Below the pieces are notes generated by a model. It ran no database searches. It saw nothing but the letters and a program-made list of their open reading frames with translations, and had not been told where the DNA came from. DNA of 64,000 bases, taken from contig JAIBCL010000001.1 of NCBI GenBank assembly GCA_019694165.1, positions 682,001 through 746,000 of the forward strand. Direction: 5' to 3'. Below, in pieces: positions 62,958 to 64,000 of the stretch (position 1 is its first letter; each line of letters starts with the position of its first letter). Both the position numbers and the translations under genes were made by a program. The stretch comes from Verrucomicrobiaceae bacterium (GTDB lineage Bacteria > Verrucomicrobiota > Verrucomicrobiia > Verrucomicrobiales > Verrucomicrobiaceae).

Positions 62958-63032
62958 TGTCAGATCACTCGCCAGTGACCGCATCTGACATCTCAGGCAC
63001 GCTAGCTATCGGCTAGCCTATACCTTTAGGCT
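62958..63032. promoter_or_regulatory. Cluster of palindromes between trpE and the HTH gene
   Basis: TGTCAGAT (62958-62965) and ATCTGACA (62983-62990) form a spaced 8-bp inverted repeat. Downstream GCTAGC recurs at 63001 and 63012, and AGCCTA (63015-63020) pairs with TAGGCT (63027-63032). These are plausible operators for the HTH protein or attenuator-like structures; function is unproven. Confidence 0.45.
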
Positions 63033-63137
63033 TCCCCGCACTCTGAATTCATTCAATCGACTAAATATGAAAATTATCTCGCAAGCTCTTCACTTTTTTC
63101 TTCCATGTCGTATGACATTTCGCTTCAATGTCGAATC

Positions 63138-63899
63138 ATGCCCGCACTCGGAACAAAATCCCCTGGTGAAATCCTTGAAGCGAAAATCAAGGACAAGAAC
63201 CTCACCCAAGCCCAGGCGGCGGACCGGATCGGCATCACGCGCCAGTACTTGAACGGCATCATCAACGGCAAGTACCCGTTCACCGCCGACCTCGGGCTGA
63301 AGCTCACCGAGCCGCTCGGCACCACGCCGGATTTTTGGAACGATGCGATCCGCGAGTTCGAGAGCTTTGCCGACACCGACGCAGGGCAGGCGCAGCAGCG
63401 CGCGAAAGACCGTGAGTCATTGGTAATGGACTTTGAACTCCAGGGCGTGCGCGCACTGGTGGATCACCAGATCGACAGCGCCCTGCAGGCGCGGCACCTC
63501 AACATCGAGCCGCCGCTGCACCGCGACCGCATCCAGGCCAGCTACGTGCTTCTGGGCTTCGGACTGAAGGGCTTCCTCTACGGGGCCAACGGACAGGCTC
63601 AACCGGTGGCCACCAAGCCATCTCTCACCCTGCGGCGCGGCGAGTCGCTGACCATCCCCACGCATGAAAAGATCAACGTGCCCGCCCGCCTGCGCGCGCG
63701 TGTGTACGGGTTGAGCGACTCGCTGGCCGACAAGTTTCTCTCTTGGAACTGCGTCAGCGTCCTTGATGCGCCCTTCAACAACCAACTCACGCTCGGCCTC
63801 ACGAACAACGGCCCATTCGAGGTCAAGATATGCCACGGCGACCCCTGTCTCATGGTCGGCTTCGAATTCCTCTCACAAGAGCCGGTGCGCTCCGCGTGA
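63138..63899 (+). CDS. HigA-type HTH protein with C-terminal dCTP-deaminase/dUTPase-like domain
   Basis: About 253 residues from the ATG at 63138 (an ATG at 63105 would add 11). N-terminal HigA-type helix-turn-helix: GEILEAKIKDKNLTQAQAAD, ITRQYLNGIINGKYPF, LGTTPDFW. Residues 100-253 have the dUTPase/Dcd fold pattern: ALVDHQIDSALQARHLNIEP, IQASYVLLGFG, SLTLRRGESLTIPTHEKI, then the core LTLGLTNNG and the ending GFEFLSQEP. The catalytic Glu of the deaminase core appears to be a Leu in LTLGLTNNG. No HigB toxin is beside it. A nucleotide-sensing regulator is likely (inference). Confidence 0.78.
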   Translation: MPALGTKSPGEILEAKIKDKNLTQAQAADRIGITRQYLNGIINGKYPFTADLGLKLTEPLGTTPDFWNDAIREFESFADTDAGQAQQRAKDRESLVMDFELQGVRALVDHQIDSALQARHLNIEPPLHRDRIQASYVLLGFGLKGFLYGANGQAQPVATKPSLTLRRGESLTIPTHEKINVPARLRARVYGLSDSLADKFLSWNCVSVLDAPFNNQLTLGLTNNGPFEVKICHGDPCLMVGFEFLSQEPVRSA

Positions 63900-63970: not shown

Positions 63971-64000
63971 ATGCTGCACCGCCTCCTCTACCCATGGAAT
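63971..64000 (+). CDS. Possible start of a further gene (cut by window end)
   Basis: ATG at 63971 opens a frame of ten codons (MLHRLLYPWN) to the window end. Too short to judge. Confidence 0.2.
   Translation, partial: MLHRLLYPWN

What the first reader, a model, noticed from the sequence alone, without database searches (positions are those of the whole stretch)
63138..63899. HTH regulator fused to a dUTPase/dCTP-deaminase-like fold
A HigA-type DNA-binding domain is joined to a nucleotide-binding barrel-like domain that seems to lack the catalytic Glu. dCTP deaminases and dUTPases are involved in anti-phage nucleotide depletion, so a nucleotide-sensing repressor is conceivable.
Basis: partly seen in the sequence, partly recalled or inferred. 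Interest (0 to 1): 0.5.

Follow-up and report, generated by a model that had tools for sequence, protein, structure and literature searches.

The report
Self-regulating repressor with dead-enzyme domain
A bacterial gene switch has a DNA-binding part fused to what looks like a broken copy of a nucleotide enzyme, sits beside a conserved partner of unknown function, and probably controls that two-gene unit.

Summary
Window 63138-63896 encodes 253 aa: a HigA-type HTH (Pfam HTH_3, 1.1e-10) plus a dCTP-deaminase-like domain (PF22769, 28.2 bits, cut-off 27). The catalytic-Glu column is G, R, Q or H, and the R115 column is never Arg, in 9 of 9 homologues. dN/dS is well below 1 in both halves.

The window cuts off a second feature. 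Gene B (~245 aa; no significant match in Pfam, NCBIfam or PADLOC) lies 36-77 bp downstream in 9 of 9 genomes with the regulator; it starts at 63971 and leaves the window. In the bacterial family A is in 9 and B in 10 of 68 genomes, 9 shared; the tenth contig starts at B.

The 8-mer TGTCAGAT recurs upstream in 6 of 7 independent relatives (0 of 200 shuffle sets reach 6). The paired site at 62958-62990 and the exact palindrome at 63105-63118 each occur once in the 7.8 Mb genome. This suggests a local autorepressor.

Nucleotide sensing is possible but weakly supported. Best reading: an autorepressor using a dead DCD scaffold for assembly or protein binding, with B as partner (coregulator or, less likely, toxin). 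Nothing was tested experimentally.

The parts
63138..63899 (+). Gene A: HigA-type HTH (about residues 7-75), linker, dCTP-deaminase-like domain (about residues 108-243) without the catalytic Glu and R115 equivalents
63971..64000 (+). Gene B, first 30 bases only; continues past the window (L010:5972-6706 plus stop), 245 aa, conserved partner with no significant Pfam, NCBIfam or PADLOC match
62958..62990 (.). Distal inverted pair TGTCAGAT...ATCTGACA, the only TGTCAGA-N(2-30)-TCTGACA in the genome; probable operator
63105..63118 (.). Proximal near-palindrome ATGTCGTATGACAT; its counterpart in G001 is its exact reverse complement; only exact match of ATGTCRTAYGACAT in the genome; probable operator
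63127..63140 (.). AATGTCGAATCATG overlapping the start codon of A, nearly identical in G001 (AATGTCGCATCATG); possible operator half-site
63001..63032 (.).

Best explanation
A and B form an autoregulated two-gene chromosomal module. Shown from sequence: A has a HigA-type HTH joined to a dCTP-deaminase-like domain whose catalytic Glu and R115 columns are not kept in any of the 9 members found, and B follows A in all 9. Inferred: A binds TGTCAGA-type sites in two groups upstream of its start and represses transcription of A-B. The DCD-like domain, whose enzymatic relatives are homotrimers, no longer does the deaminase chemistry and serves as an assembly and protein-binding scaffold. B binds it and acts as co- or anti-repressor, tuning DNA binding. 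Step likelihoods (my judgement): not an active deaminase or dUTPase 0.95; local autoregulation 0.75; DCD domain as scaffold or interaction module 0.55; B a direct partner of A 0.6.
For: HTH and DCD domains. E138 column G/G/G/G/R/Q/H/H/H and R115 column D/E/T/T/D/G/G/G/G in 9 rows; of the 26 columns invariant in 3 family Dcds, 3 are kept in all 7 distinct A rows (an L, the E of TxE, and the N after the catalytic position), which I read as fold-keeping. dN/dS 0.07-0.25 for A and 0.06-0.24 for B in 5 pairs each, 0.05-0.18 for the halves of A in 3 pairs. B next to A in 9 of 9; A in 9 and B in 10 of 68 family genomes, 9 shared, the tenth contig starting at B. In 288 phylum genomes full-length A and B are each in the same 2. 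TGTCAGAT upstream in 6 of 7 independent relatives, while the best 8-mer of each of 200 shuffled sets reached at most 4. The paired site and the exact proximal palindrome each occur at one place in the genome.
Against: No binding data. One relative (L014, G011) lacks TGTCAGAT and shows one weaker site. With 6-mers instead of 8-mers the sharing is not unusual: 67 of 200 shuffle sets reach 6 or more. The motif could belong to another factor. Absence of other exact palindromes does not exclude regulation through single or degenerate sites; one 1-mismatch match lies on contig C6, as many as the control gives. No structural evidence for trimerisation: the model of A is poor (pLDDT 63, pTM 0.38) and the fold comparison covered the HTH only. 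The model of B is weak (pLDDT 54.7, pTM 0.55).
Confidence: 0.48

Rival explanations
1. Type II toxin-antitoxin-like module: A is the antitoxin and autorepressor, B a new toxin neutralised through the DCD-like domain.
For: HigA-type HTH, two-gene arrangement, probable autoregulation with sites found only here, strict pairing. Charged or polar positions of B are kept: E128, R147 and S185 in 9 of 9 full-length B, S56, R199 and R201 in 8 of 9, so an active site is not excluded.
Against: No significant match of B to a toxin family: Pfam 5 proteins, NCBIfam 4, PADLOC 9 rows. B is large at ~245 aa for a classical toxin (recalled). Not found on plasmids, phages or viral contigs. No Pfam match in 3 small ORFs near the start of A.
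Confidence: 0.22
2. Nucleotide-sensing repressor: the DCD-like pocket binds a deoxynucleotide and releases A from its operator.
For: The fold belongs to a dNTP-binding superfamily; DCD enzymes are cooperatively regulated by dTTP (PMC4827122, passages). The domain is under purifying selection. This protein keeps the S111 and S112 columns, and three relatives have K in the R110 column, as one of the three Dcds does.
Against: R115 and E138 columns lost in 9 of 9; S111 kept in 2 of 9. The operator-type patterns tested lie only at this locus. The genome shows no other PF22769 and no PF00692 match at E<=0.01, and A does not track with Dcd or Dut in 68 family genomes.
Confidence: 0.15
3. Anti-phage defence: A guards against phage interference and releases B as effector.
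For: HTH repressor plus effector layouts occur in defence systems (recalled); patchy distribution, B in 10 of 68 genomes and 5 of 11 genera.
Against: PADLOC: A (one protein) has HTH matches only, best E 1.3e-5; B none in 9 rows. Downstream neighbours shared by 3 of 4 g4 genomes fit chromosomal inheritance rather than a mobile island.
Confidence: 0.08
4. Decaying fusion without function.
For: Catalytic residues lost; marginal Pfam score of the DCD part.
Against: Open frames in 9 of 9, dN/dS well under 1 in both halves and in B, conserved upstream motif.
Confidence: 0.02

Closest known systems
HigA antitoxins (TIGR02607; 6chv, 4mct, 6f8h GraA, 6jpi/6lb3 PaHigA)
   Same: HTH sequence and fold (6chv: Z 12.8, rmsd 2.5, 80 aligned). 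PaHigA binds palindromes in its own promoter as cooperative dimers (PMC6987408, passages), comparable to the palindromes here.
   Different: Solved HigA chains are about 100 aa without a DCD domain and pair with HigB; here no HigB was seen next to A, there is an extra domain of about 140 aa, and the partner B has about 245 aa.
dCTP deaminases / DCD-like superfamily (PF22769; E. coli Dcd 1xs1, 4xjc)
   Same: Homologous domain by sequence.
   Different: Catalytic Glu and R115 equivalents lost; fused to an HTH; by sequence not a deaminase.
SaPI Stl repressor with phage dUTPases (7dlv, 6h4c, 8p8o)
   Same: Repressor control through contact between an HTH protein and a dUTPase (abstract starts in the listing); similar HTH.
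   Different: There the dUTPase is a separate phage protein; here a DCD-like domain is part of the repressor. Analogy only.

Membership tests
HigA antitoxin | Score over the TIGR02607 cut-off (47.7 bits) | tested here: not met
   44.0 bits
HigA antitoxin | Adjacent RelE/HigB-type toxin gene | tested here: not met
   3 small ORFs near the start of A and 5 B proteins give no Pfam toxin match
HigA antitoxin | HigA-type HTH | tested here: met
dCTP deaminase (enzyme) | Catalytic Glu in the LTLExxN motif | tested here: not met
   G/R/Q/H in 9 of 9
dCTP deaminase (enzyme) | Score over the TIGR02274 cut-off (92.8 bits) | tested here: not met
   31.2 bits
DCD-like superfamily (fold) | Score over the PF22769 gathering cut-off (27 bits) | tested here: met
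   28.2 bits; 8 of 9 members match at E<=0.1
DCD-like superfamily (fold) | Homotrimeric beta-barrel structure | tested here: inconclusive
   Model poor in this part; fold comparison covered the HTH only
Trimeric dUTPase | Score over the PF00692 cut-off (22 bits) | tested here: not met
   12 bits
Type II toxin-antitoxin system | Two-gene unit of regulator and partner | tested here: met
   9 of 9, gap 36-77 bp
Type II toxin-antitoxin system | Autoregulation through operators in the own promoter | tested here: inconclusive
   Conserved motif with genome-unique pair and palindrome; no binding data
Type II toxin-antitoxin system | B is toxic and A neutralises it | not testable with these tools
   Needs expression experiments
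Known anti-phage defence system | Match to PADLOC models beyond the HTH | tested here: not met
   A, B; 9 B rows

The most novel reading that the evidence does not exclude
A new class of self-contained regulatory module: a repressor that uses a catalytically dead, trimer-forming deaminase barrel as its assembly and sensing hub, bridging two groups of operators some 150-200 bp apart by DNA looping, with a new partner protein family (B) as effector or signal receiver.
Probability: 0.17. Interest if true: 0.65.

Novelty: new variant of a known kind. Interest (0 to 1): 0.45.

Why it matters
It would be a pseudoenzyme of the dUTPase superfamily recruited as the control domain of a bacterial repressor, an inverse of the Stl-dUTPase story where the two are separate proteins. 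The partner B is a conserved family without a significant match in the libraries searched. The module is a small, concrete target: two genes, one short promoter and a predicted operator.

Tried and rejected
Global regulator of nucleotide metabolism: not the main reading, since the paired site and the exact palindrome are each at one place in the genome and no other DCD or trimeric dUTPase was found in it. A as replacement for a lost Dcd or Dut: not supported, since most family genomes show neither, whether or not A is present. Mobile or phage origin: no full-length relative in phages, plasmids or viral contigs; the 17 plasmid and 5 phage records cover at most 43% of A, residues up to 116. The viral-contig scans use short peptide patterns and reach close relatives only. 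tRNA-linked island: of 8 loci scanned a tRNA-Arg lies 1.1-1.2 kb from the module in 2, a tRNA-Lys 4.4-4.7 kb from B in 3, none in 3; not pursued. Common ancestry of the DCD domain and B: hhalign probability 0.3. Fold of B: the model suggests a beta-alpha-beta-beta-alpha-beta core (residues 128-243), but Foldseek has no match at E<=0.001 (best 4.9e-3) and VIA Z is at most 8.6 (rmsd 2.5, 90 aligned) to an unrelated protein, so no relative is claimed. PHROGs matches of B are weak (4 proteins scanned; best E 1.1e-4, one protein, unknown family). My first argument that B has too few conserved polar residues to be an enzyme rested on an alignment with one truncated row; redone without it it fell, and I moved the toxin rival from 0.20 to 0.22 and the best explanation from 0.50 to 0.48.

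Literature: no paper holding 'dCTP deaminase', 'helix-turn-helix', 'fusion' and 'antitoxin' together; one search found none for its terms. The listings (15 of 855 papers shown; 12 of 97; 10 of 61; 15 of 24; 1 of 1) show no such fusion in titles and abstract starts; the papers not shown were not seen. I make no wider claim of absence in print. Passages only were seen of PMC6987408, PMC5122711 and PMC4827122.

Not done: a Foldseek search with the model of A and a separate model of the DCD domain (both prediction jobs used). In the phylum searches at most 9 candidates per genome were scored.

Full report
What was checked. The ORF at 63138-63899 is real. Its first part is a HigA-type HTH (Pfam HTH_3 1.1e-10; TIGR02607 44.0 bits, below its 47.7 cut-off; PDB HigA matches). 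Its second part passes the Pfam DCD cut-off narrowly (28.2 against 27 bits). Because this is narrow I tested it in other ways. 8 of 9 family members match PF22769 on their own at E<=0.1. A profile of the 9 hits solved dCTP deaminases (4xjc E 1.1e-7, 9ln0 1.5e-5, E. coli 1xs1 9.5e-4). A 7-sequence DCD-part profile aligns with three ordinary Dcds of the same bacterial family at hhalign probability 93.7. A 4-sequence DCD profile gave only E 0.028 at best, so the homology is sound but distant. The AF2 model (4 sequences, pLDDT 63, pTM 0.38) is too poor to test the fold, and the structure comparison covered the HTH only.

Catalytic state. In the joint alignment the E138 column (E in the three Dcds; E, A or D in the E. 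coli Dcd entries aligned) is G, G, G, G, R, Q, H, H, H in the nine A proteins; the R115 column is D, E, T, T, D, G, G, G, G. The R110 column is L, V or K, and one of the three Dcds also has K. The S111 column is S in 2 of 9, this protein among them. Numbers and roles of E. coli Dcd residues are recalled. Of the 26 columns invariant in the three Dcds, three are kept in all 7 distinct A rows: an L, the E of the TxE turn and the N after the catalytic position; I read these as fold-keeping. So the domain is very likely no longer a deaminase. It is nevertheless maintained: NG86 dN/dS is 0.07-0.25 for A and 0.06-0.24 for B (5 pairs each) and 0.05-0.18 for the halves of A (3 pairs); dS is 1.2-1.8 in the G000-G001 and G010-G017 pairs, so those ratios are rough.

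The neighbour that the window cuts off. The contig continues past the window. Gene B starts at window 63971, 71 bp after the stop of A, and encodes 245 aa. A relative of B follows A on the same strand at 36-77 bp in 9 of 9 genomes (in G022 it is cut by the contig end). B has no significant Pfam match (5 proteins, best E 0.16), no NCBIfam match (4 proteins), no PADLOC match (9 rows) and only weak PHROGs matches. Over the 68 held genomes of the family B is found in 10 and A in 9, 9 shared; in the tenth (G008) the contig begins at B. Over 288 genomes sampled from the phylum, full-length A and B are each in the same 2 (at most 9 candidates per genome scored); the other listed A matches are to the HTH part, apart from one DCD-only match in a 193-aa frame. 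Three of the relatives lie on named records: MAGs called Prosthecobacter debontii, Verrucomicrobiota bacterium and Verrucomicrobiaceae bacterium (L058-L060); their contig lengths equal those of G001, G017 and G010. A first scan of genome contigs with the single protein found nothing. Full-length A was not found in phages, plasmids or viral contigs, nor was B. Neighbours differ between genera: a trpE-like gene and mutM here, PPK2 in G001, obgE in G011. Downstream genes look alike in 3 of 4 g4 genomes, and one downstream gene is shared by the two g10 genomes.

The operator. Among 260-bp upstream regions of 7 independent relatives (L017 and L018 dropped as near copies of L016) the 8-mer TGTCAGAT/ATCTGACA occurs in 6; the best 8-mer of each of 200 dinucleotide-shuffled sets reached at most 4. 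For 7-mers the best is also 6, shuffles at most 5; for 6-mers 67 of 200 shuffle sets reach 6 or 7, so the signal lies in the longer word. The miss is L014. Over the nine fetched regions L010-L018 the 8-mer occurs 9 times in the 2.3 kb upstream of A and 6 times in the other 113 kb (my count; near copies included). In the window it occurs twice, both in the pair at 62958-62990; two is no excess for 64 kb (1.69 expected), but their place is. TGTCAGA-N(2-30)-TCTGACA occurs at one place in the 7.8 Mb genome, this one, with no control match. A second site, ATGTCGTATGACAT at 63105-63118, is the reverse complement of its counterpart in G001 and the only exact match of ATGTCRTAYGACAT in the genome; with one mismatch there is one more place, equal to one control match. 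Looser TGTC(A/G) sites lie in two groups, about -143 to -258 and -9 to -56, in 5 of 7 relatives (L012 has only the far group by this pattern, L014 only one near site); about one such 5-mer per region is expected by my arithmetic, 1 to 7 were seen. This is the layout of a local autorepressor; looping between the groups is conjecture.

How it most likely works. Shown: domain make-up, loss of catalytic residues, strict A-B pairing, conserved upstream motif with a genome-unique pair, purifying selection. Inferred: A binds these sites and represses A-B; the DCD barrel, a homotrimer in its enzymatic relatives (PMC4827122, passages), works as assembly and interaction platform; B modulates A. The AF2 model of B (3 sequences, pLDDT 54.7, pTM 0.55) hints at a ferredoxin-like beta-alpha-beta-beta-alpha-beta core, with no specific relative. 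In 9 full-length B sequences E128, R147 and S185 are invariant and S56, R199 and R201 are kept in 8, so B could be a binding protein or an enzyme; a toxin stays possible.

Fusion and lost Glu: correct. Nucleotide sensing: possible, but the Glu and R115 columns are gone and the sites tested show no wider regulon. The genome shows no other DCD and no trimeric dUTPase, and most of the family shows neither, which neither demands nor supports a sensor. Anti-phage role: no evidence found.

Verdict. A confirmed observation, a partly supported interpretation, and a more interesting unit than described: a new variant of an HTH autorepressor with a pseudoenzyme domain and an unnamed conserved partner.

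Noticed in passing
G000 whole genome; family genomes: No trimeric dUTPase (PF00692) and no ordinary dCTP deaminase found in this 7.8 Mb genome (96% complete). PF00692 matches in 2 of 68 and PF22769 in 12 of 68 family genomes, 6 of these 12 wholly or partly through gene A itself. How these bacteria make dUMP and remove dUTP was not followed; all-alpha dUTPases were not searched. The survey 'Life without dUTPase' (PMC5122711) does not hold the words Verrucomicrobi or Akkermansia in its main text.
   Followed up: partly
G010:C13:100549-101499: A 378-aa frame with two DCD matches, about 43 kb from the A-B locus on the same contig; looks like a tandem-domain dCTP deaminase.
   Followed up: no
L012:8178-8202 (upstream of A, minus strand): TTAACATATGTTAATAATATGTTAA, an AT-rich palindromic array in the promoter of one relative, unlike the TGTCAGAT sites.
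   Followed up: no
L010:7879-7953; L012:9199-9270: tRNA-Arg (CCT) about 1.2 kb downstream of B past mutM in the window's genome, and a tRNA-Arg (CCT) about 1.1 kb upstream of A in G010.
   Followed up: no
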